A stretch of DNA of 64,000 nt from Accumulibacter sp. (GTDB lineage Bacteria > Pseudomonadota > Gammaproteobacteria > Burkholderiales > Rhodocyclaceae). Position 1 is the stretch's first letter; each line of letters opens with the position of its first letter. Location: positions 1 through 64,000 of the forward strand of contig NZ_JAMTDV010000086.1 of NCBI RefSeq assembly GCF_023806565.1, in the 5' to 3' direction. The notes under the pieces were generated by a model. That model saw only the letters and a program-made list of their open reading frames with translations, was not told where the DNA came from and did no database searches. Shown here piece after piece: positions 41,140 to 51,821 of this stretch. A program made the position numbers and the translations under genes.

Positions 41140-42021
41140 TCAAATCCCCAGCGGGCCAAGGTCGAGTTGCCGGTGGCGCATTGCCGGGCACCAGAAATAC
41201 GCACCCGACTCGGGGCGGGTGAACCGGAACAGGCCATCGACGATACTGTCGTCGATTCCGAGCATTCGCCGCAACTGCGCTTCGAATGGATCGAGCGAGG
41301 CGGCGAAGGCGACGAACATCAGACCGCCGCGCCCGCCTTCGGTCCACGGCATGGAGCGGCGCAGGAGGAAGGCCGCCGGCGTGAAGCTCTCCTGCGCCGT
41401 GCGTTTGACGTGCGCCGAAGCCGGGGCATCGTCGATCTCGACGTTATCGACGCGGCGGCGTCCGATGCTGAGATCTTGTTCCGCGGCGGGCATGCTATCG
41501 AAACGATCGAAATCATGCTGCCAGCGTTGCACGGCGACGAAGCTGGAGCCGGCGAGAACGCGCGAATCGTTGCCGACCAGCGCGGTGCGCACTGCATCGT
41601 CGTCAGTCGGATTCTCGGTTCCGTCCTCGTAACCGGTGAGATCGCGGCCGCCATCGTGCAGGAAGGCGTCACGCCTGTCGTCCAAACGAAACGCAGGCAA
41701 CAGCGCGCCTTCGATCCGCCTAGCACGATGCATGATTTCCCCACGCTCGTTGCCGCGCAGCCAGACCCACACCGCTGCCGGTGTCGCCGGCAGTTCCAGT
41801 CCGGCTCCGGCGAACGTTGGAAAACCGCGCAGCCCCGGGATATCGGCGCCCAGCGCCGAAACCAGAACGCGCCCGAAGCCGACCACCGTTCGTTCGCCGT
41901 CGGCGAGCTCGGCAAGCGCGCGCAGGCAGTCCTTCGGGTGCGTGGCGGGTTTGAGAGAGAAAGTCAGATAACGCGCGACCGGCGGTATCGGGAGAAGGAT
42001 TCCGGCTTGTGGTGTGTTCAT
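41140..42021 (-). CDS. DyP-type heme peroxidase
   Basis: A 293-residue dye-decolorizing peroxidase. The distal GYEDGTENP motif contains the catalytic Asp, and the His of SAHVKRTAQ is the likely heme ligand. No Tat signal is visible, so this is a cytoplasmic (or encapsulated) form; no encapsulin gene is in the window. Start chosen at 42021 (MNTPQAG, AAGGA upstream); an ATG at 42060 is possible. Confidence 0.92.
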   Translation of the reverse strand: MNTPQAGILLPIPPVARYLTFSLKPATHPKDCLRALAELADGERTVVGFGRVLVSALGADIPGLRGFPTFAGAGLELPATPAAVWVWLRGNERGEIMHRARRIEGALLPAFRLDDRRDAFLHDGGRDLTGYEDGTENPTDDDAVRTALVGNDSRVLAGSSFVAVQRWQHDFDRFDSMPAAEQDLSIGRRRVDNVEIDDAPASAHVKRTAQESFTPAAFLLRRSMPWTEGGRGGLMFVAFAASLDPFEAQLRRMLGIDDSIVDGLFRFTRPESGAYFWCPAMRHRQLDLGPLGI

Positions 42022-42096
42022 GTTCGGGACAATTCCTTGGTCAAGAATGGGCGGTGTCATGCCGGCCTGTCTGCCGGCTGTCCACACCGCAGGTTT

Positions 42097-42390
42097 TCAG
42101 CAAGTGGCAACTTGGCGGAAACCGGCGCTGCTTCCGATTTCCGCGGCGTTGCCCTCGCTGCACAGGATGCTGTCGACCCGCGCCATCGAAGGTCCGCGAC
42201 GTGCCCAGAGGAGCAGCGCTTCAACTGCCTCCGGCGGACCCGACACCAGCGCTTCGACGCTGCCGTCGTGGCGGTTGCGCACCCAGCCGGACAGGGCGAG
42301 GCGCTGCGCTTCGGCGCAGAACGACCAGCGATAGCCGACGCCCTGGACGCGGCCCCGGATGCGCAGGGTGCGGCATACTGCTTGCTTCAT
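42097..42390 (-). CDS. Acylphosphatase
   Basis: A 97-residue enzyme hydrolysing acyl phosphates. The phosphate loop [10 protein letters not shown] with its Arg and the catalytic Asn in [14 protein letters not shown] are present. The start at 42390 gives the usual size; longer frame upstream lies in the intergenic region. It is upstream of the DyP gene on the same strand. Confidence 0.93.
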
Positions 42391-42444
42391 TTTCGTCTCC
42401 CGAGTCGGGAATCCTGGACGGGATGCTGCGCCCGCCACCAATGC

Positions 42445-42453
42445 TGGCATAAT
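42445..42453 (+). promoter_or_regulatory. Candidate extended -10 promoter for the dab operon
   Basis: TGGCATAAT, a TGn-extended -10 element, about 190 bases before the first antiporter-like gene in the 252-base divergent region 42391-42642. No matching -35 was seen, as is common for extended -10 promoters. Confidence 0.35.
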
Positions 42454-42642
42454 CCCGGAAACCGCAGCTGGCCGCCACTCCTTCGCGGGCAAGACCGCGC
42501 GTGTCGCGCCGTGCGGTTTTGCCGTGCGCGAGAAGATGGCTCTGCCGGCTGGCGTTCGGTTACGGTTTCCAGGTTAATCGTCGTCGATGAGCAAGAGAAT
42601 TTCAAGAGGATCCCCTCCGCTGCCTGCGCTTGCCGCACTGCA

Positions 42643-44115
42643 ATGCTGAAGACATTGCTGCTGCTGCCGCTGCTTGGCGCCGCCCTGTTGGCGCTGTTAC
42701 CGAGCCGCAGGTTCGATCTGCTGCGCCACGTGGCGAGCGTCGTCGCGGCGGCCACGCTGCTTTGTGCGGTGCTGTTGCTGGCCGATTTCGATGCGGCGAG
42801 CGCCGAGATACAGTTTTTTGAGACACGGCCGTGGAATCCACGCGTCGGATCGAGTTTCGCACTCGGCGTTGACGGCGTTTCGATGCCGATGCTGCTGCTG
42901 GCGACGGTCCTCAGCTTTGTCGCGGTTTTCTCCTCGCGGGGAATCCGCAGTGGCGCCAAACTTTATTTTTCCTTGCTGCTGGTTCTCGAGGCGTCATTGC
43001 TGATCGTGTTCACCGCCCGGGACTGGTCGCTCTTCTACGTCTGTTGGGAACTGACGCTGATCCCCCTGTTCTTCCTGATCGACCGCCTAGGAGGAGTCAA
43101 CAGACACCGCGCTGCGCTCAATTTCGTCCTCTACACGCTGGGTGGTTCGGTCTTCTTGCTGATTGCACTGTTGTTGCTCTACGACGTCGCTCCGGGACAC
43201 AGTTTCGCGATGGCCGACATGGCTGCCGGTGGCAGACAGTTGCCGGTTCGTACGCAAGTTCTCGTCTTTTTCGGCCTGTTGCTGGGTTTTGGCGTCAAGA
43301 TGCCGATCGTGCCGCTGCATGGCTGGCTACCGCTGGCGCATGTCGAGGCGCCGAGTCCAATCTCGATCCTGCTCTCGGGAATCCTGCTGAAGATGGGCGC
43401 CTACGGCTTGATCCGTGCGGCCGCGACACTGCCGGCTGCGGCTCTCGCCCTGCAGGACTGGCTGGCGCTGCTCGCGCTGGCCAGTCTGGTCTATGGCGCC
43501 GTGCTGGCCTGGCGACAGACCGATCTGAAAGCGATGGTCGCGTATTCGTCGATTTCGCACATGGGCGTCGTCCTGCTCGGTGTCGCCGCGCTCAATCAGG
43601 CCGGTCTCAGCGGTGCGCTGACGCAAATGGTCGCGCACGGATTGACGGCCGGACTGCTGTTCCTGTTGATCGGGCTGCTCTACGAGCGCACGCATCGTCG
43701 CGACCTGGCGGCTTACGGTTCGCTCAATCGCATCGCGCCGCGTTTCGCCGTGTTCGTCGTGTTCGCTCTGCTCGCCTCGGTCGGTTTGCCGGGTAGCGCC
43801 GGTTTCGTCGCCGAGCTGCAGGTGCTGCTCGCTGCCTACGGTCGTTGGGGCAGCTGGCTGGTCCTTCTGTCGATCGGCGTTCTCATCTCTGCGGCCTACG
43901 CGTTGCGCGCCATCCGCTGCCTGTCGACCGGAGCGGAGCGCGGCATCCTGGCGCCGGGGGCGGGCGTGATGGCTCTTGCCGATCTGACGCGCAGCGAATG
44001 TGCGGCGGCCTGGCTATTGAGTATCGCGACGGTCGGAATCGGTTGCTATCCGTCGCCGCTGCTGCACGTAATGGCCGCCTCGCTGGTCAAGCTGACGAGA
44101 CAGTTTGGAGTCTGA
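42643..44115 (+). CDS. NuoM/MrpD-like antiporter subunit of the dab operon (first)
   Basis: A 490-residue membrane protein with about 14 helices of the proton_antipo_M family. The key charged residues are kept: E136 in VCWELTLIPLFFL, K219 in GFGVKMPIVPLHGW, a second Lys in ILLKMGAYGLIR and the SSISHMG His. It should move protons like NuoM. No good ribosome site precedes the ATG at 42643; a 20-codon upstream frame (42587-42649) overlaps it by seven bases and may couple translation. It ends directly before dabA, with no gap. Confidence 0.88.
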   Translation: MLKTLLLLPLLGAALLALLPSRRFDLLRHVASVVAAATLLCAVLLLADFDAASAEIQFFETRPWNPRVGSSFALGVDGVSMPMLLLATVLSFVAVFSSRGIRSGAKLYFSLLLVLEASLLIVFTARDWSLFYVCWELTLIPLFFLIDRLGGVNRHRAALNFVLYTLGGSVFLLIALLLLYDVAPGHSFAMADMAAGGRQLPVRTQVLVFFGLLLGFGVKMPIVPLHGWLPLAHVEAPSPISILLSGILLKMGAYGLIRAAATLPAAALALQDWLALLALASLVYGAVLAWRQTDLKAMVAYSSISHMGVVLLGVAALNQAGLSGALTQMVAHGLTAGLLFLLIGLLYERTHRRDLAAYGSLNRIAPRFAVFVVFALLASVGLPGSAGFVAELQVLLAAYGRWGSWLVLLSIGVLISAAYALRAIRCLSTGAERGILAPGAGVMALADLTRSECAAAWLLSIATVGIGCYPSPLLHVMAASLVKLTRQFGV

Positions 44116-47100
44116 GTGATCGCACCGACGCACACGGCAGGAGCAGCAGTGGAGTCGCTCGATCGCCTGCAGCTCGTCCGCGTATGCGTCCAGCAGCTTG
44201 CCCATTATCTCCCGGCGCAAGCGCCGTTGCGCGACTTCATCCATCACAATACGCTGCACGCCTTCCAGCATCTACCTTTTGCCGCTGCCCTCGGCGAAGC
44301 GGCGCGCCTGACAGGCGCGCGCCCCTGGCTGCACGAAGACCGTTGCCGTGAGCTGTTCCGGCAGGGGCGGATCGATACTGACGATCTCGTGGCCGCCTTG
44401 CGGCAACTGCCGGATTGCCGCATCGATCAGGTCCTCGTTGCCGGTGCAGGCGGCGAGGTGCGCCGCGGTGAGGTACTGCTGGCAGCGCTGTTGTACCCGC
44501 CTGCCGCCGTGTCAGCAGTTCGCCTGCGCTGGCTAAGCGACGAGAGCGCCGCTTGCACGGGAGTGCCGAGCGATCTCGACCCGGCCATACGGCGGCGTTT
44601 GCTCGCGACTTCCGCGAGCACGAGCGAGGTGAAAGTGGTCGGCGACCTCTGGGCAGCCGCGCGTGAGTTGCAGGGATCGGTCGCGGCGCCCGCCACCGGT
44701 CTTGCCGGGCCGACAGCGGCGAAGGCGGCTGGCCAGTGGCAGGAAATGCTTTACCGTCTGGGTCGGGACTGCACCTTCGCCGAATTGCTGGCGCAACTGA
44801 CCGGCGAAGATTTTCGACAGCCGCTGCAAGCGACCTTGATTCGTCACCTCTCGGCGCAGCTCGACCAGGGTCTGGCCGCCTGGCGGAATCCAGCGGCGGC
44901 GCAGGGATTTTATGCCGCCTGGCGATGCAGTGCCGCCGGCGATTGGGCTTGGGAGCTCGATGAATTCGCTGGCGCACGACACGACATCGGCGAGCTTCCA
45001 GACGACCCCCTGCAGTTGATCGCCGACGAGCTGAGTTCCCTCGGCGTCGATGAGTCGCACTTTTCCGCGTACCTGCGGCGCTTGCTGATGGAGCTGCCCG
45101 GCTGGGCCGGAATGGTGCACTGGCGGGAGTCGCGCGTCAGCGGCGAGGCTTTTCCGGTCAGCCTGATCGATTTCCTGGCGGTGCGCCTCGTGCTCGAACG
45201 TCTGTACGCCGAGCAGCTGGTGCGTCGCGTTTGGGACCTTCCCTTGCGGGAACTGGGCAATCATTTCGCGAATCACCCGGCCGAACTGTCGGTCAGGTAT
45301 GCCGTCGGCAGTCGACCATGGCCAGATGAAGTCCTGGACCTGGTGCGACCGCACCTGTTGACCGCGCAGACAGAGAGCACCTGGCAGTCGCTCGCCGACC
45401 GCCTCGCCGATTCGGCGGCGAGCGATTCGCACGTCGCCGGCGAGGCGGCTGCCTGGCCGCTGTACATGCTGGCGCTGAGGTTGGGTCTGAGCGCTTCCGA
45501 CCTGCGGGCAATGGGCGCAAGTGGCGCCGAGTCACTGCTCTCCTGCGCCGCTTCGCTGACCGATGACGAGCGTGGCCTGGTCTGGCTGCTGGCCTACGAA
45601 CGTCACTATCGACAGCAGATTCTCGCCGCGCTGCGCGCCAACCATGGCCGTGCGACAACCCTCGCCGATCGGGCCACGGCGCAGCTCGTGTTCTGCATGG
45701 ACGATCGTGAGGAGGGAACACGCCGTCATCTCGAAGAGGTCAATCCGGCGCTCGAAACGTTCGGTGCTGCCGGCTTCTTCGGCATGCCGATGCTCTGGCA
45801 AGGCCTCGACGATGAATCGCCAACCGCTCTCTGCCCGGTCGTCGTGCGCCCCGTGAATTTCTTGCGCGAGGAGGTGCCAGACGCGCTCGCCACCGTCTAC
45901 CGCCAGCATCGGCGCCGTCGCGGCTGGCGTCTGGCGTGGCGCGAAAGACTGCATCAGGGCAGTCGGCGCGGCGGGCTGCAGGCCACACTGCTGATCGCTG
46001 CGACGGCACCGATGGCCTTGCTCGCACTGCTGCTGCGAACACTCGCCCCGGGGCCTCTAGGAAAACTGCTTGGCCGCTGCCGGGAGTCCATCGACAAGTC
46101 GGTCGTTGGCAGCTTAGAGGTCACCGCCAGGAGCGACGAAGCGAGTCGTGCTGCTGACGCCGATGCGCCACGCCGCGGTTTCAGCGAGGACGAACAGGTG
46201 GCGCGTGTTGACGGTTTCCTGCGCAGCATCGGTTTGACGAGCAACTTCGCACCCTTGGTGCTGATCGTCGGTCACGGTTCCGACAGCCGCAACAACCCCC
46301 ACCTCGCTGCCTACGACTGTGGCGCCTGTTCCGGGCGGCACGGTGGCCCGAATGCGCGGGTGTTCGCGACGATTGCCAACCGGCCGGCGGTGCGCGAGCG
46401 ACTCGCGGGCCAGGGAATCGTCATTCCCGATACGACGCTCTTCGTCAGCGCCGAGCACAATACCTGCGACGAGAGCTTCGTCTGGTACGATGATGCCCAA
46501 GTGCCGGCCAGCCACCGCGAGGCCCTTGCCGCGCTGCGTCGCGATTGCGCGACAGCTGCGCGCCGGCATGCCGTCGAGCGCTGCCGTCGCTTCGCCTCGG
46601 CGCCTCGCCACCCGTCGCCGCGGGAGGCGCAGCGGCATCTGCTGGACCGTCGCCACGACATCGCGCAGGCGCGCCCCGAACTCGGGCATGCGACGGTCGC
46701 TGCCGCTTTTGTCGGTCGCCGCGCGATGAGTCGCGGCGCCTTCTTCGATCGACGGGTTTTCCTGATTTCCTATGATCCGCTGCCCGATTGCGAAGGGCGA
46801 GTGCTCGAAGCGACGCTGCTGGCGGCGGCGCCGGTCGGCGCCGGAATCAGCCTCGAGTACTACTTTTCGACGGTCGATAATGACGGGTTTGGTTGTGGCA
46901 GCAAGATCATGCACAACCTGACCGGACTGTTCTCGGTGATGCAGGGAGCCGGATCCGACCTGCGCACCGGTCTGCCGCTGCAAATGGTCGAGATCCATGA
47001 GGCGATGCGCTTGCTGGTGGTCGTCGAACAGACCGTCGATGTGGTCACCGCCATCTATCAGCGGCAGCCACCACTGCAGGAACTGATCGGCAACGGCTGG

Positions 47101-47301
47101 ATCGTCCTTGCTGCCCAACATCCGGAAACCGGCGAGATCGACCTATTCGATCCGGCTGAAGGCTGGCAGCCCTGGCAGGACGACCCGGTGAACAAAGGGG
47201 AATCGGCCTTGCCGATCGTCGAGTGTTCGTTCGACTGGTTTGCCGGGCGACGAGAACCCTTGCCGCCGGCCCTGCTGCGGCGCCCGGTAGCTGTCCCATG
47301 A
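44116..47301 (+). CDS. dabA: DabA-like DUF2309 protein, carbonic anhydrase-like subunit of an inorganic carbon transporter
   Basis: A 1061-residue protein of the DUF2309/UPF0753 family. Residues matching the zinc site of characterised DabA are visible: C527 and D529 with R531 in VFCMDDRE, H720 in IVGHGSDS, and C735 in AYDCGACSGRHGG; the 15-residue H-to-C spacing agrees with that family. DabA with a NuoL-like DabB is thought to hydrate CO2 vectorially and trap bicarbonate. The start is a GTG immediately after the previous stop. It ends in an ATGA overlap with the next gene. The protein is longer than the roughly 800-900 residue forms I know. Confidence 0.9.
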   Translation: MIAPTHTAGAAVESLDRLQLVRVCVQQLAHYLPAQAPLRDFIHHNTLHAFQHLPFAAALGEAARLTGARPWLHEDRCRELFRQGRIDTDDLVAALRQLPDCRIDQVLVAGAGGEVRRGEVLLAALLYPPAAVSAVRLRWLSDESAACTGVPSDLDPAIRRRLLATSASTSEVKVVGDLWAAARELQGSVAAPATGLAGPTAAKAAGQWQEMLYRLGRDCTFAELLAQLTGEDFRQPLQATLIRHLSAQLDQGLAAWRNPAAAQGFYAAWRCSAAGDWAWELDEFAGARHDIGELPDDPLQLIADELSSLGVDESHFSAYLRRLLMELPGWAGMVHWRESRVSGEAFPVSLIDFLAVRLVLERLYAEQLVRRVWDLPLRELGNHFANHPAELSVRYAVGSRPWPDEVLDLVRPHLLTAQTESTWQSLADRLADSAASDSHVAGEAAAWPLYMLALRLGLSASDLRAMGASGAESLLSCAASLTDDERGLVWLLAYERHYRQQILAALRANHGRATTLADRATAQLVFCMDDREEGTRRHLEEVNPALETFGAAGFFGMPMLWQGLDDESPTALCPVVVRPVNFLREEVPDALATVYRQHRRRRGWRLAWRERLHQGSRRGGLQATLLIAATAPMALLALLLRTLAPGPLGKLLGRCRESIDKSVVGSLEVTARSDEASRAADADAPRRGFSEDEQVARVDGFLRSIGLTSNFAPLVLIVGHGSDSRNNPHLAAYDCGACSGRHGGPNARVFATIANRPAVRERLAGQGIVIPDTTLFVSAEHNTCDESFVWYDDAQVPASHREALAALRRDCATAARRHAVERCRRFASAPRHPSPREAQRHLLDRRHDIAQARPELGHATVAAAFVGRRAMSRGAFFDRRVFLISYDPLPDCEGRVLEATLLAAAPVGAGISLEYYFSTVDNDGFGCGSKIMHNLTGLFSVMQGAGSDLRTGLPLQMVEIHEAMRLLVVVEQTVDVVTAIYQRQPPLQELIGNGWIVLAAQHPETGEIDLFDPAEGWQPWQDDPVNKGESALPIVECSFDWFAGRREPLPPALLRRPVAVP

Positions 47302-48842
47302 GCGCGCCGGAGGCCCTGCTGGCCGTGATGCCGGCCGCCAGCCACGCGCTCTGGCTGGTGCCGCTGCTGCCCCTGCTGGCGGCCGCGCTGATTGCCATTC
47401 GCCTGCTCCTGCGTCCTGGCGGGGACGCGGCCGAGCCGTTGACCGCCGGGATCGCGACTGCTTCGCTGCTTGCGGCACTGCTGCTGCTGTTCACCCTGGA
47501 CCTGTTGGCAATCGGCAGTGCGCTGCCGGTACGACAGGAGTTTGGCGACTGGCTGCGAATCGGCGCCGTTCCGGTTCGCCTGTCCTTCGTTGCCGACGCG
47601 TACAGCTTGCCGATGGCGACGCTGGTAACCTTGATCGGCTGGATTGCGCTGCGTTTTTCCGCGACGTATCTGCACCGCGAAATCGGATTCCACCGCTTTT
47701 TCTTCGGCATGACCTTGTTTCTTGGCGGCATGCTGCTGATCGTTCTTTCCCGCAACGCCGTACTGGCCTTTGTCGGCTGGGAACTGGCCGGCGTCAGTTC
47801 CTGGCTGCTCATCGCGTACGCCTGGGAGCGCCCCCTCGCGACGGGCAACGCACTGTTCGTTTTCTTGACCAACCGGGTGGGCGACGCCGGTTTCATGCTC
47901 GGCATCGGCCTCGCCGTGTGGTCGGTCGGGACCGTCGAGTGGTCCGGGTTGGGCGGTGACGGCGGCCTTGCCAGGGTCACTGCGCGCCTGTTGTCGATCG
48001 GCTTTGTGCTGGCCGCGCTGGTCAAGTCGGCGCAGCTTCCGTTCACCCCGTGGATCGGACGAGCGCTGGAGGGACCGACGCCGTCGTCGGCGATCTTTTA
48101 CGGATCGCTGATGGTGCATGCCGGCATCTATCTGCTCTGTCGCCTGCAGGGTCTGCTGGCACAGGTGCCGGATCTGATGCTGCTGCTCGCGGTTGTCGGT
48201 CTGTTGACCGCTGCGTACGGCAGCCTCTGCGCCTTGGTACAGAGCGACGTCAAGTCGGCGCTGATTTTTTCGACCGTGACCCAGGTCGGTCTGATGTTTT
48301 TCTGCTGCGGCCTTGGACTGTTCTGGCTCGCGGCCTGCCATGCCGGCCTGCATGCCGCCTGGCGCGCCTATCAGTTTCTGTTGGCTCCGGCGTATATGCA
48401 CCTGGTACGTCGGCCGGCAGCGCCAGCACCACGCTGGCTGAGCGCGCGACGCTGGTGGTACACTGCCGCGCTGCAGCGCTTCTGGATCGAGGCACTGGGC
48501 AACACCCTGCTGGCGCGCCCGACGCTGGCTCTCGGCCGGGACGTGCGCGCGCTCGACGAGCGCTTCATCGATCCGCTGGTCGGAGAACCGCTCGTCGAGC
48601 GTTCTGCAGAGGGCGACACGGCCGACGAGTTGATCCGTGGTCACGGCCTCGCCGGTCGCGCGCTCTTCCGCTTCGCGGATCGAATGCAGCGACTCGAGAG
48701 CTCTCTCCTGCTCAGCGGCGACGGCTCGATGAAGACTACGGTGGAGCGCGCCGCGCACTACGCCGATGCGGTGGAGTCGCTGCTCGAACAACCGCGCTAT
48801 CTGATGCTGATGGTGATGGCAACCTTGGTGGTGATCCTGTGA
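47298..48842 (+). CDS. dabB: DabB-like NuoL/MrpA-family membrane subunit
   Basis: A 514-residue protein. About 12 membrane helices carry E162 (FVGWELAGVSSW) and K243 (LVKSAQLPFTPWIG), and the STVTQVGLM His-free helix typical of DabB-like proteins; the last about 130 residues are soluble-looking before a final hydrophobic stretch. This is the established partner of DabA, coupling cation flow to CO2 hydration. Start overlaps dabA (ATGA at 47298-47301) and the stop overlaps the next GTG. Confidence 0.88.
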   Translation: MSAPEALLAVMPAASHALWLVPLLPLLAAALIAIRLLLRPGGDAAEPLTAGIATASLLAALLLLFTLDLLAIGSALPVRQEFGDWLRIGAVPVRLSFVADAYSLPMATLVTLIGWIALRFSATYLHREIGFHRFFFGMTLFLGGMLLIVLSRNAVLAFVGWELAGVSSWLLIAYAWERPLATGNALFVFLTNRVGDAGFMLGIGLAVWSVGTVEWSGLGGDGGLARVTARLLSIGFVLAALVKSAQLPFTPWIGRALEGPTPSSAIFYGSLMVHAGIYLLCRLQGLLAQVPDLMLLLAVVGLLTAAYGSLCALVQSDVKSALIFSTVTQVGLMFFCCGLGLFWLAACHAGLHAAWRAYQFLLAPAYMHLVRRPAAPAPRWLSARRWWYTAALQRFWIEALGNTLLARPTLALGRDVRALDERFIDPLVGEPLVERSAEGDTADELIRGHGLAGRALFRFADRMQRLESSLLLSGDGSMKTTVERAAHYADAVESLLEQPRYLMLMVMATLVVIL

Positions 48843-50338
48843 GCGAAATCTCTTGGGCGACGCAGGCCGGCTACCCCTTGCTGGCGACCTTGCAGTGTCT
48901 GCCGCTCGCAGCCACGATGTTGCTGCTGATCATGCGCCAGCACGAGCAGGCGCTACGTCTCGGACGCCTGTTCGCCATCGCCGAACTGGCCGTGGCAATC
49001 GATCTCTACGGGCGCATCGATGTGGCGAACGGCAACCTGCAGTTCGCGGAGCGTCTTGACCTGTTTGCCTATCACGCGGCGGCCGACGGGATCAGCGTGC
49101 TTTTCATTCTGCTCACGGCGCTGCTCGGCGTGCTGCTGTCGTTCTATGGCATGGCGCGTCAGCAGATATCACCGGTACACCTGCTCGGCGTGCTGTTGGT
49201 CATCGAATCGTCGCAGATGACGATGCTCACGACGATGAACCTGCTGTGGTTTGCCGCTGCTTCCGCGCTGCAGCTCACGCTCGTCGGCTACCTGCTCTGG
49301 CGCTGGGCGTCGGCGCGTGAAGAGAATCTCGCTTTGTCGCGCTTCCTGCAGTATCAGCTTTTCGGCTGGTGCCTGTTTCTTGCCGGGGCGGTCGTCATCG
49401 TCTGGAGTCATGCCGATGTCGTCGGCGGGCGCTGGAGTTTCGACCTCCTCGATCTGCTGCACACGCCGCAGATCGACAAGTACCAGTCGGCGGCGTTCTA
49501 TCTGCTCTTTTATGGCCTGGCGATTCGCACGCCACTTTTTCCGCTGCACGGTTGGTTACCCAACTCCGCCGGCTACGGCCTGATCGCCGTCGGTCCGGTG
49601 CTCCTGCTCGGCGTCAAGGTCGGTGTTTATGGCATGGCGCGCTTTCTCTTGCCGCTGACGGCGGAAGCGGTGCTGATCTGGCAGTCCTATGTGGTGGCTT
49701 TCGCCATGATTGGCGTCTTTTTCGCCGCCAGCATGGCTTTTCGCCAGGCCAATCTTCGCCGGCTGATGGCTTTCGCCGTGGTCAGTCATACGAGCCTGAT
49801 CGTCATCGGCCTGTTCACGTTGCATCCGGCTGGTCTGCAAGGGGCGCTGCTGTTGGCGGTCAATTTCGGTCTGGCAATCACGGTGATGTTGCTGATGGTT
49901 GGCTATGTGTACCGCCGCACCGGAACCACGGCGCTCGACCGACTCGGCGGTCTTTTCGACCGCGTTCCGTTCATCGCTCTCGCTTTTCTGATCGGCGGCC
50001 TGGCGCTGCTCGGAATGCCGGGAACGCCGGGATTCGACGCCGTTCACCTGGTCCTCGAAGCGTCGATCGATACCTTCGGCGCGCTGCCGACGATCGCCAC
50101 TGCGCTTGGCAACGTCGCCGCCGCCGGTTTCCTGCTGTGGGCCTTTCAGCGCGCTTTCCTGGCACCACGACCGCGCGATCTGCCGGCGGCAAGGATCGCC
50201 CGCACGGGCGCGATGGAATATTTCGTCGGCGGCGCGACGCTGATCGTCCTGCTGGCTGCCGGTTTCTACCCGGAGCCGTGGCTGCAACTGACCGACAGCG
50301 CGACGCAGGCTCTTGCCGCCTATTTCCAGCATGACTGA
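48839..50338 (+). CDS. NuoM/NuoN-like subunit with altered key residues (second)
   Basis: A 499-residue membrane protein, clearly related to the other antiporter-like subunits in fold and in FPLHGWLP. It differs at functional sites: an ungapped alignment puts A143 where the others have the helix-5 Glu, and R230 where they have the helix-7 Lys (GLAIRTPLFPLHGW). The helix-8 Lys K260 (LGVKVGVYGM) and the VVSHTSL His remain. It may be a structural subunit or work with a changed proton path. GTG start in overlap with dabB; its end overlaps the next gene by eight bases. Confidence 0.84.
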   Translation: MSEISWATQAGYPLLATLQCLPLAATMLLLIMRQHEQALRLGRLFAIAELAVAIDLYGRIDVANGNLQFAERLDLFAYHAAADGISVLFILLTALLGVLLSFYGMARQQISPVHLLGVLLVIESSQMTMLTTMNLLWFAAASALQLTLVGYLLWRWASAREENLALSRFLQYQLFGWCLFLAGAVVIVWSHADVVGGRWSFDLLDLLHTPQIDKYQSAAFYLLFYGLAIRTPLFPLHGWLPNSAGYGLIAVGPVLLLGVKVGVYGMARFLLPLTAEAVLIWQSYVVAFAMIGVFFAASMAFRQANLRRLMAFAVVSHTSLIVIGLFTLHPAGLQGALLLAVNFGLAITVMLLMVGYVYRRTGTTALDRLGGLFDRVPFIALAFLIGGLALLGMPGTPGFDAVHLVLEASIDTFGALPTIATALGNVAAAGFLLWAFQRAFLAPRPRDLPAARIARTGAMEYFVGGATLIVLLAAGFYPEPWLQLTDSATQALAAYFQHD

Positions 50339-51821
50339 ACTGGCCGCTTATCCGCTGCTCAGTACTCTGCTCGCGTTGCCCTTGCTCGGCGCGCTGTTGA
50401 CGGCATGGGCCCGGCGTGCCGCATGGGTTCAGTGGATCGCGCTTGGCGCCACGGGTCTGACCTTGCTCTGCTCGATGCTGGTGGTCGCTGCATTCGATCG
50501 GGGCGACACCGGTTTCCAGTTACTGGATGCGGCCCCCTGGATAGCCGGAGTGAGTGTCCGGTATCTGGTCGGGGTCGATGGGATATCCCTGCTCTTCCTG
50601 CCGGCGACCAGCCTGCTCTTCTGCGCAACGGTCGTTGCCAGTTGGCGGATCAGGGCGGACGCGGCGCCGCGTGGGGTGTATTTCGCGCTGCTGCTTCTTT
50701 TCGAAGCAGCTACCCTTGGTGTCTTCTGTGCGCTGGACACGATTCTGTTCTTCGCCTGCTGGGAGTTCACGCTGCTGCCGTTGTACTTCCTGGTCAGCCT
50801 GTGGGGTGTCGGTGCCGGGCGACAGGCGGCAGCCGTCCATTACTTCCTGGTGATGCTGACCGCCGGCGTGCCGCTGCTGTTCGGCCTGTTGGCACTTGCC
50901 TTCGGGCATGGGGATGGGGCTACGCCGGTTTTTGACCTGCCAACACTGCTGGCGACGCCGCTGCCCGAGCGAAAGCAGTATCTGGTATTCCTGCTCCTGC
51001 TTGCCGGTTTCGGTGTGAAGGTACCGCTGGTGCCCGTGCACACCTGGCTTCCGTCGCTGGCGATGGCGGCGCCGGCGGCGGTCACTTCGCTACTGGTCGG
51101 GCTGAAGATCGGCGCCTATGGGCTGATCCGCGTCGCCATCCCTTTGGCGCCACTCGCCGCGCGCGAGTTGCACTGGCTGCTCGCCGGCTTCGGTACCGTC
51201 GCCATCCTCTATGGTGGCGTCGCCGCCCTGGTGCACGGCAATTTGCGTGGCGTACTGGCCTACTCCAGCCTGTCGCACGTCGGGCTGGTGCTTCTCGGCC
51301 TCGCTTCCTTCTCGGTCTCTGCTTTGCAGGGTGCGCTGTTGCAACTGCTGAACTTCAGCGTCGCTGCTGGCGGCGGCTTCTTGCTGCTGTCTTTCCTGCA
51401 GCGGCGCACGGCGTCCACCGACATCGCCCGGCTTGGCGGCGTGATGCATCGCATGCCGCTGCTCGCGGGTTTCTTCCTGCTGTTCGGTCTGGCGGGTATC
51501 GGCCTGCCCGGAACCAGTGGCTTTCCTGGTGAATTGCTGATCGTCGTCGCCACGCTGCATAGCCATACCGGTGCGGGTCTCGCGGCGTTGTTCGGCACGG
51601 TGCTCGCGGCGGCGAGTTTTCTGGGCCCATTCCGGCAGGCTTTTCTCGGGCCGCTGCGGAATCCGGACGTCTCTGCGGCCGACGATCTGCTCGCGCGTGA
51701 GCTAGTCTGCCTGTCGTTGCCGGCATTGCTGATCGTCGTCCTCGGCGTCTATCCGCTCCCGTTGCTCGAATTTCTGCGACCGACCGCCGAGGCGTGGGTG
51801 GCAGCGCTCGCCGGGTTGTAG
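50331..51821 (+). CDS. NuoM/MrpD-like antiporter subunit of the dab operon (third)
   Basis: A 496-residue, about 14-helix protein with the full set of key residues: E145 (ACWEFTLLPLYFL), K230 (GFGVKVPLVPVHTW), a further Lys in LVGLKIGAYGLIR and the SSLSHVG His. It begins inside the end of the second NuoM-like gene. It closes a five-gene block, M-like, DabA, L-like, M-like, M-like, with no complex I peripheral or MrpC/E/F/G-type small subunits, so this is not complex I or a classical Mrp antiporter. Confidence 0.88.
   Translation: MTELAAYPLLSTLLALPLLGALLTAWARRAAWVQWIALGATGLTLLCSMLVVAAFDRGDTGFQLLDAAPWIAGVSVRYLVGVDGISLLFLPATSLLFCATVVASWRIRADAAPRGVYFALLLLFEAATLGVFCALDTILFFACWEFTLLPLYFLVSLWGVGAGRQAAAVHYFLVMLTAGVPLLFGLLALAFGHGDGATPVFDLPTLLATPLPERKQYLVFLLLLAGFGVKVPLVPVHTWLPSLAMAAPAAVTSLLVGLKIGAYGLIRVAIPLAPLAARELHWLLAGFGTVAILYGGVAALVHGNLRGVLAYSSLSHVGLVLLGLASFSVSALQGALLQLLNFSVAAGGGFLLLSFLQRRTASTDIARLGGVMHRMPLLAGFFLLFGLAGIGLPGTSGFPGELLIVVATLHSHTGAGLAALFGTVLAAASFLGPFRQAFLGPLRNPDVSAADDLLARELVCLSLPALLIVVLGVYPLPLLEFLRPTAEAWVAALAGL

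What the first reader, a model, noticed from the sequence alone, without database searches (positions are those of the whole stretch)
42643..51821. Enlarged DAB-type carbon-uptake operon: DabA with four antiporter-like subunits
Seen: five genes with zero gaps or 4-8 base overlaps, ordered NuoM-like, DabA (1061 residues), NuoL-like, NuoM-like, NuoM-like. Known: characterised DAB systems need only DabA and one NuoL-like DabB. Inference: this is a larger membrane machine, perhaps with several proton paths driving CO2 hydration or another DabA-dependent reaction, closer in architecture to complex I arms or Mrp. The zinc-site residues C527, D529, H720 and C735 are intact, so activity is plausible. 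In a host that may not be a dedicated autotroph its purpose is open.
Basis: partly seen in the sequence, partly recalled or inferred. Interest (0 to 1): 0.82.

Follow-up and report, generated by a model that had tools for sequence, protein, structure and literature searches.

The report
Carbon-uptake enzyme on four-part proton arm
Five neighbouring genes encode a carbonic-anhydrase-like enzyme together with four membrane proteins related to those of respiratory complex I; the set is conserved in many bacteria and lacks key parts of the one relative whose structure is solved, so it probably uses the cell's proton gradient in a different way to capture CO2.

Summary
In detail: NuoM-like (M1), DabA, NuoL-like (L), NuoM-like (M2) and NuoM-like (M3) genes are tightly packed at 42643-51821, and DabA's zinc site is intact. 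The same order occurs in 58 distinct loci, from the window's genus out to Magnetococcales. In four further genomes where it is rearranged, the missing antiporter genes lie elsewhere or are fused; one locus (L128) is an unresolved exception. Against solved DAB2 (9rd0) this is a distinct type. L has TM1-11 but lacks TM12-15 and ends in a region weakly resembling complex I's lateral helix. The DabA finger has lost the essential Glu444 (Glu in 0 of 58; 48 of 48 in classical DABs). The position fixed as Leu658 in DAB2 is His in 57 of 58. L keeps the TM5 Glu (58 of 58 against 0 of 48). M1 and M3 keep the pumping set; M2 is rewired. Best reading: an arm of up to four modules couples protonmotive force to DabA's CO2 hydration over a distance. 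Biochemistry is untested. COGNAT (2017) already noted NuoM and SulP genes beside a DabA clade; I found no description of the five-gene machine in my searches. The host genome encodes RuBisCO.

The parts
42643..44115 (+). M1, NuoM-like antiporter-type subunit, 490 aa
   Evidence: PF00361 E 1.2e-67; TM5 Glu136, TM7 Lys220, TM8 Lys251, TM12 Glu392; groups with the host NuoM, support 85
44116..47301 (+). DabA, beta-carbonic-anhydrase-like zinc subunit, 1061 aa
   Evidence: PF10070 E 5.8e-237; DabA2 9rd0_A E 2.1e-65; C527, D529, R531, H720, C735; finger 444-equivalent is Ala628; 658-equivalent is His858; AlphaFold pLDDT 80.9
47298..48842 (+). L, truncated NuoL-like subunit, 514 aa: TM1-11, lateral-helix-like tail, one C-terminal TM
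   Evidence: tail in the model is of low confidence in places
48839..50338 (+). M2, rewired NuoM-like subunit, 499 aa: Ala at the TM5 Glu site, TM7 Arg231, TM8 Lys261, TM12 Asp-x-x-His
   Evidence: naturally fused to L in L114
50331..51821 (+). M3, NuoM-like antiporter-type subunit, 496 aa
   Evidence: PF00361 E 5.3e-52; TM5 Glu145, TM7 Lys231, TM8 Lys260, TM12 Glu402
42394..42642 (+). 249-bp gap between a divergent acylphosphatase gene and M1; presumably holds the promoter (inference)
   Evidence: acylphosphatase 42097-42393 minus strand; no sigma-70-like match here

Best explanation
The five genes encode one membrane complex. DabA is a cytoplasmic beta-carbonic-anhydrase-type zinc enzyme whose hydrophobic hairpin enters the membrane beside L. 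L supplies TM1-11, an interface carrying the TM5 Glu and its partner charges, and a lateral helix that braces its neighbours; it has lost the part (TM12-15) that in DAB2 is completed by DabA's Glu444. M2 sits next to L and relays charge with a changed set (TM7 Arg, TM8 Lys, TM12 Asp/His). M1 and M3 are proton-conducting modules. Protons flowing in through the arm drive CO2 hydration in DabA one way, so bicarbonate accumulates for carboxylases. Shown: genes, conservation, residue sets, missing TM12-15, one natural L-M2 fusion. Inferred: a single complex, adjacency, proton flow, direction and stoichiometry.
For: Five-gene order in 58 distinct loci (21 of the genus including the window, 9 family, 6 order, 6 class, 15 from other classes of the phylum, 1 named Magnetococcales contig). 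In four further genomes (G967, G971, G538, G532) the antiporter genes missing beside dabA lie elsewhere: M1-M3-L-M2 in two (M1 cut by the contig start in G971), M1-L-M2-M3 in one, and in one L::M2 fused beside dabA with lone M1 and M3 elsewhere. Zn ligands and Asp 58 of 58, Arg 57 of 58. L: TM5 Glu 58 of 58 against 0 of 48 in classical DabBs; 0-2 predicted TMs after TM11 in 58 of 58 against 3-4 in 48 of 48. The two best PDB matches of the L tail profile are one region of NdhF. M1 and M3 keep E144, K234, K265 and E407 in 55-57 of 57 each. RuBisCO in 30 of 47 five-gene genomes tested, own included; relatives of a SulP gene beside 14 of 38, and of a CsoSCA-like gene beside 7 of 38, loci outside the same-genus relatives.
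Against: No biochemical or expression data. Glu444, needed in DAB2, is absent, so proton coupling cannot simply be carried over from DAB2. His at the 658 position could mean an ordinary reversible carbonic anhydrase. L has Tyr and Arg where Nqo12 and classical DabBs have His and Lys (57 and 58 of 58). M2 has Glu two residues after the lost TM5 Glu in 18 of 58, so the loss may be a shift there. The lateral-helix match is weak (E 0.02 and 0.21). L128 has M1-DabA but no L, M2 or M3 in the 6 kb to the contig end. All 15 genomes tested from other classes lack RuBisCO. A separate beta-CA match is present in 36 of 47 five-gene genomes (one below the cut-off), own included. The window's own operon has no SulP neighbour; the genome's seven PF00916 matches are on other contigs.
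Confidence: 0.52

Rival explanations
1. DabA and L alone form a two-subunit DAB; M1-M3 make a separate Mrp-like antiporter that happens to be co-transcribed.
For: DAB2 consists of DabA2 and DabB2 only (PMC13144422); in G967, G971 and G538 dabA is apart from the antiporter genes.
Against: In those three genomes L stays in the antiporter cluster when dabA is apart, and in L114 it is fused to M2. L alone lacks TM12-15 and the finger lacks Glu444, so by the DAB2 model the pair would have an incomplete path.
Confidence: 0.12
2. A sodium- or proton-coupled bicarbonate transporter, as proposed for MpsAB, with DabA as a binding or gating subunit.
For: MpsAB is proposed as a Na+/HCO3- symporter (as told in PMC13144422); Mrp subunits are among the homologues.
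Against: Zn site and Asp-Arg dyad are kept and a canonical beta-CA His is present, which a plain transporter would not need (inference).
Confidence: 0.15
3. The reverse direction: DabA chemistry releases energy and the arm exports ions, as COGNAT suggested for the family before its function was known.
For: COGNAT 2017 proposes exergonic chemistry driving ion export; full TM5/7/8/12 sets in M1 and M3 as in a pump.
Against: CO2/bicarbonate conversion offers little free energy (general knowledge); DAB2 is held to run on PMF (PMC13144422).
Confidence: 0.08
4. A largely unregulated carbonic anhydrase tethered to a membrane arm, used for pH or CO2 homeostasis rather than accumulation.
For: His at the 658 position (57 of 58); Gln or His there is canonical for beta-CAs; 17 of 47 five-gene genomes tested lack RuBisCO.
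Against: L658Q in DAB2 gave no in vitro activity; 36 of 47 hosts tested have a beta-CA match as well.
Confidence: 0.13
5. A stress-tolerance complex: a Leptospirillum NuoL-DUF2309 operon was reported to lower reactive oxygen and raise chromate tolerance.
For: PMC9080137, passages read: expression in E. coli, thiol/disulfide role suggested from a CXXC motif; the two Cys (C735, C738 here) are conserved in 58 of 58.
Against: One of those two Cys is a zinc ligand in DAB2 (C539); that operon is of the two-subunit kind.
Confidence: 0.04

Closest known systems
DAB2 of Halothiobacillus neapolitanus (DabA2-DabB2, PDB 9rd0)
   Same: DabA family, zinc ligands, Asp-Arg dyad, membrane hairpin, NuoL-like partner
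   Different: dabA lies upstream of L here; finger Glu444 absent; Leu658 is His; Ser356 is Glu; L lacks TM12-15 and keeps the TM5 Glu; three more NuoM-like subunits
COGNAT clade C of COG3002/YbcC operons (2017)
   Same: ybcC upstream of nuoL with NuoM and SulP genes as frequent neighbours; probably the same lineage (inference)
Respiratory complex I membrane arm and photosynthetic NDH-1
   Same: several antiporter-like modules, TM5/7/8/12 charges, lateral-helix-like tail on L; some cyanobacterial NDH-1 forms also drive CO2 hydration
   Different: no redox arm or other complex I subunit among the five genes; that DabA is unrelated to CupA/CupB is recalled
DAB1-type operons (L upstream of a long DabA; label by recall of the DAB1/DAB2 naming)
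   Same: long DabA near 1040 aa
   Different: extra length lies partly elsewhere in DabA; keeps Glu444 and Leu658; its L has TM12-15 and no TM5 Glu

Membership tests
DabA (PF10070) | family profile over full length | tested here: met
   E 5.8e-237, profile 1-747 of 747
DabA (PF10070) | Zn ligands Cys-His-Cys with Asp-Arg dyad | tested here: met
   C527, H720, C735, D529, R531
DAB2-type vectorial carbonic anhydrase | finger Glu (E444 in DabA2) completing the proton path | tested here: not met
   Ala628; Glu in 0 of 58 five-gene DabAs, Asp in 2 of 58, Glu in 48 of 48 classical ones
DAB2-type vectorial carbonic anhydrase | DabB with TM12-15 beside the finger | tested here: not met
   hydropathy, AlphaFold model of L
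DAB2-type vectorial carbonic anhydrase | Leu at position 658 (strictly conserved in the paper's 150 homologues, though not essential) | tested here: not met
   His858
DAB2-type vectorial carbonic anhydrase | PMF-dependent CO2 hydration | not testable with these tools
   needs biochemistry
Complex I membrane arm | full-length NuoL (15 TM helices by the count in PMC13144422) with lateral helix | tested here: not met
   L has TM1-11, a lateral-helix-like tail (E 0.02 and 0.21 to NdhF) and one TM
Complex I membrane arm | TM5 Glu, TM7 Lys, TM8 Lys, TM12 Glu in M1 and M3 | tested here: met
Complex I membrane arm | TM5 Glu, TM7 Lys, TM8 Lys, TM12 Glu in M2 | tested here: not met
   only the TM8 Lys
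Complex I membrane arm | part of the host's NADH dehydrogenase | tested here: not met
   a separate run of NuoL-, NuoM- and NuoN-like genes lies on contig C102 (labels mine, from order and similarity)
Mrp antiporter | MrpA-MrpD with the small Mrp subunits | tested here: not met
   the best NCBIfam matches of the four antiporter-like proteins are NuoL or NuoM, not Mrp, and no small subunits lie among the five genes; Mrp-like genes lie on C139 (label mine)

The most novel reading that the evidence does not exclude
This is a separate class of DabA machine in which a membrane arm of up to four modules, with an L subunit cut down to a relay and a rewired M2, drives a non-redox enzyme over a distance. 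Long-range coupling of complex I type would then be a general device that can be plugged into carbonic anhydrase chemistry, by a route that dispenses with the DAB2 finger glutamate.
Probability: 0.42. Interest if true: 0.82.

Novelty: new variant of a known kind. Interest (0 to 1): 0.64.

Why it matters
Complex I's long-range coupling is hard to dissect because the redox arm is so large. A natural arm of antiporter-like modules bolted to a single zinc enzyme would isolate the membrane half of the problem. It would also show that CO2 capture by DabA proteins has at least two coupling designs, with consequences for carbon-fixing bacteria and for engineering CO2 uptake.

Tried and rejected
Full NuoL reading of L: rejected by hydropathy (the same scan finds 15 segments in the host's own NuoL-like protein) and the AlphaFold model. 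Simple decay of M2: rejected, because its changed residues are nearly invariant themselves (TM7 Arg 58 of 58, TM8 Lys 58 of 58, TM12 Asp 57 and His 58 of 58). A two-gene DAB with unrelated M genes: disfavoured. One odd assembly: rejected.

Led nowhere: Foldseek of the DabA model gave no match below E 0.045; none of the 50 listed was DabA2, and a beta-carbonic anhydrase stood at rank 37 (E 2.9). I take it that DabA2 is not in that library, but did not check. Pfam on the L tail gave nothing consistent. Promoter-like sites 2 against 0.9 expected and terminator-like sites 15 against 10.7 say little. Host name: not established. The trees are quick ones with SH-aLRT support only and warnings of long branches. 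The distance correlations have no control with unlinked genes; shared descent alone can give high values.

Selection: of the PF10070 hits I fetched 120 regions, leaning towards long DabAs. With nine named loci and the window, 130 rows entered: 62 five-gene, 43 classical, 25 other. Among the 58, M1 of L047 and M3 of L058 are cut by an end and M3 of L131 is broken. The 25 others include rows cut by contig ends (such as L039, L053, L062, L077, L093), broken ones (L002, L041) and the odd ones told in the report. Structure alignments held 41 of 54 non-redundant DabAs and 45 of 51 L proteins. The antiporter tree held 23 of the 58 loci. The RuBisCO and beta-CA searches covered 47 of the 57 five-gene genomes that have handles, and 33 classical ones.

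Full report
What is there. The window carries five genes on the + strand, 42643-51821, with a zero gap and then overlaps of 4, 4 and 8 bases: M1 (NuoM-like), DabA, L (NuoL-like), M2 and M3 (NuoM-like). Pfam and NCBIfam agree. The genome shows one PF10070 match and eleven PF00361 matches: the four here, a run of NuoL-, NuoM- and NuoN-like genes on contig C102, a Mrp-like pair on C139 and another pair further along the window's own contig (these labels are mine, from order, length and similarity). So the operon is not the host's complex I.

How common it is. PF10070 is found in 26 of 28 same-genus genomes (own included), 25 of 150 in the family, 65 of 300 in the order, 83 of 369 in the class and 69 of 398 in the phylum. 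I mapped gene order in 130 rows. The string M1-DabA-L-M2-M3 occurs in 62 rows, 58 distinct loci after four duplicates were dropped: 21 in the genus (window included), 9 family, 6 order, 6 class, 15 from other classes of the phylum, and L008, a named Magnetococcales contig. In three of the 58 an end gene is cut or broken (L047, L058, L131). Classical operons, with L upstream of DabA, make up 43 loci with 48 DabAs.

The four antiporter genes belong together. In G967 and G971 dabA stands alone and the cluster M1-M3-L-M2 lies on another contig (M1 cut by the contig start in G971). In G538 dabA stands alone and M1-L-M2-M3 lies elsewhere. In G532, L and M2 are fused into one 1045-residue protein next to dabA, and M1 and M3 lie singly elsewhere. 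L and M2 are neighbours in each of these and in the 58. The exception is L128 (G791): M1-DabA with no L, M2 or M3 in the 6 kb up to the contig end; I had no genome search left to look further. Pairwise distances of the five proteins correlate at 0.887-0.940 over 56 loci, highest for L-M2 (0.940), L-M3 (0.937) and A-L (0.934); without unlinked genes as a control this is only consistent with joint descent.

DabA. Against DabA2 (9rd0, E 2.1e-65), the zinc ligands and Asp353 are kept in 58 of 58 and Arg355 in 57 of 58. Three positions separate this class from the classical one: Ser356 is Glu (58 of 58 against 0 of 48); Leu658 is His (57 of 58, Tyr in one, against 0 of 48); and the finger's Glu444 is lost (Glu 0 of 58, Asp 2 of 58, against Glu 48 of 48). 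The DAB2 paper (PMC13144422; I read the abstract, the first of nine parts of the text, sections 8, 9, 11 and 12, and passages) reports that E444A and E444Q abolish DAB2 activity in vivo, that Leu658 was strictly conserved among 150 homologues, and that beta-CAs carry Gln or His there. It also reports that L658Q gave no in vitro activity and that several changes of Leu658 were harmless in vivo, so the His alone proves little. The hairpin itself stays hydrophobic (residues 625-643; helices 589-618 and 621-643 in the model). Much of the extra length of this DabA lies before the first zinc Cys (526 residues here against a median of 372 in short classical DabAs).

L. The protein matches NuoL and NdhF over about residues 18-378, and the model aligns with E. 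coli NuoL over about 360 columns at TM 0.64. After TM11, 133-165 residues remain; a hydropathy scan finds 1 TM there in 49, none in 7 and 2 in 2 of 58, against 4 in 44 and 3 in 4 of 48 classical DabBs. A profile of the tail from 45 of the loci, searched against the PDB sequences, has as its two best hits the same part of cyanobacterial and chloroplast NdhF, E 0.02 and 0.21, ahead of three unrelated proteins at E 1.3-3.8; that this part is the lateral helix is recalled. Alone this is weak; with a NuoL-type body in front it is persuasive to me. L keeps the TM5 Glu in 58 of 58, where 0 of 48 classical DabBs have it. The DAB2 paper suggests that the Ile in its place in DabB2 favours an 'open' state; putting Glu back halved growth yield. 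That the Glu is kept here because L faces another module is my inference. L also has Tyr and Arg where Nqo12 has His241 and Lys329 (57 and 58 of 58).

M subunits. M1 and M3 keep the TM5 Glu, TM7 Lys, TM8 Lys and TM12 Glu (M1 56, 56, 57 and 56 of 57; M3 57, 57, 57 and 55 of 57). In M2 the aligned TM5 site holds an uncharged residue in the 56 of 58 listed (with Gln 37, Glu 18, His 2, Asp 1 two residues later), TM7 Lys is Arg (58 of 58), TM8 Lys is kept (58 of 58), and TM12 reads Phe-Asp-Ala-x-His (Asp 57, His 58 of 58) in place of the Glu. In a tree of 23 of the loci each of M1, M2, M3 and L forms one group (support 100, 100, 96, 100); M1 groups with the host NuoM (85), M2 with M3 (97); L, DabB and NuoL form an unresolved set.

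DabA tree. The 58 five-gene DabAs and eight odd loci split from the classical ones with support 100; the five-gene rows are not strictly one clade, since L114, L138 and L144 lie among them. The eight odd loci (L006, L007, L092, L114, L136, L137, L138, L144) and two loci not in the tree (L077, L128) share Glu356 and His658, and none has Glu444 (L114 has Asp). The Cytophagaceae contig L006 has DabA-L with 14 predicted TMs in L and a SulP gene upstream. L092 and L136 have DabA, a short L and one distant M. The five-gene form thus sits inside a wider clade, probably COGNAT's clade C, whose paper (PMC5700660, passages read) notes NuoM and SulP genes as frequent neighbours.

Physiology. RuBisCO is found in 30 of 47 five-gene genomes tested: 11 of 11 genus (own included), 7 of 9 family, 6 of 6 order, 6 of 6 class, 0 of 15 from other classes; and in 28 of 33 classical ones, one of them a weak match. 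The 15 are Magnetococcia-like as far as known; Magnetococcus is held to fix CO2 by the reductive TCA cycle (recalled). Within 150 family genomes, strong RuBisCO matches (E under 1e-70) occur in 13 of 17 with a five-gene-type DabA (four of these partial at contig ends and one, G171, placed by length and genus only) against 51 of 133 others, Fisher p 0.004; counting all matches, 13 of 17 against 59 of 133, p 0.019 (counted by hand; test). Relatedness inflates this, and I take the two draws of 150 to be the same genomes. By BLAST clustering, relatives of a SulP-Usp protein flank 14 of 38 loci outside the same-genus relatives and relatives of a CsoSCA-like protein 7 of 38; one member of each cluster was tested by Pfam. 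The window has neither beside the operon; its genome has seven PF00916 matches on other contigs. A beta-CA match exists in 36 of 47 five-gene genomes, one below the family cut-off, so the operon is unlikely to serve as the cell's plain carbonic anhydrase.

Mechanism. The DAB2 model needs Glu444 to complete DabB's outer half-channel. Here neither that Glu nor the helices around it exist, while the interface Glu that DAB2 lacks is kept and three more modules are added. I therefore propose coupling along an arm: proton movement in M1 and M3 shifts charges through M2 into L, and L's contact with the DabA hairpin opens the active site. Up to three or four protons per CO2 would allow accumulation at low CO2 or low PMF. 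Steps from proton flow onward are inference.

What is in print. My searches of the held library were: DabA with DabB and NuoM, DUF2309, DabA with DabB (40 of 271 listed, mostly unrelated), DIC and DAB terms, Accumulibacter with DabA, YbcC, NuoL, NuoM (15 of 139 listed), MpsAB terms (15 of 17 listed), family identifiers (10 papers) and Accumulibacter with RuBisCO. Beyond the COGNAT remark I saw no description of a five-gene DabA machine in the listings or in what I read: PMC13144422 in part, and passages of PMC5700660, PMC9080137 and PMC10880623. I did not open the other listed papers.

Noticed in passing
L171 (contig C86:94000-108000 of the window's genome): Another pair of antiporter-like genes (484 and 676 aa) lies about 47 kb downstream of the operon on the same contig.
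   Followed up: partly
L045, L049, L056, L061: Four same-genus loci have an extra weakly similar antiporter-like ORF upstream of M1.
   Followed up: no
L114:10799-13936: Natural fusion of L and M2 into one 1045-aa protein with 24 predicted TMs.
   Followed up: yes
L092, L136: Smaller variant: DabA, a short L without TM12-15, and one distant M-like gene.
   Followed up: partly
L078, L079, L080, L081, L098: Tandem operons with two classical DabAs, each with its own upstream L.
   Followed up: no
L090:1013-3730: SulP transporter fused to STAS and Usp domains near the five-gene operon; relatives near 14 of 38 loci outside the same-genus relatives.
   Followed up: partly
L128 (G791): M1-DabA pair without L, M2 or M3 in the 6 kb up to the contig end.
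   Followed up: partly
L047 and L037 (G011): A second, short DabA-like ORF (99 aa) with a 90-aa L-like ORF near the intact operon.
   Followed up: no
window 41140-42087 (-) and 42097-42393 (-): DyP-type peroxidase and acylphosphatase genes run divergently from the operon.
   Followed up: no
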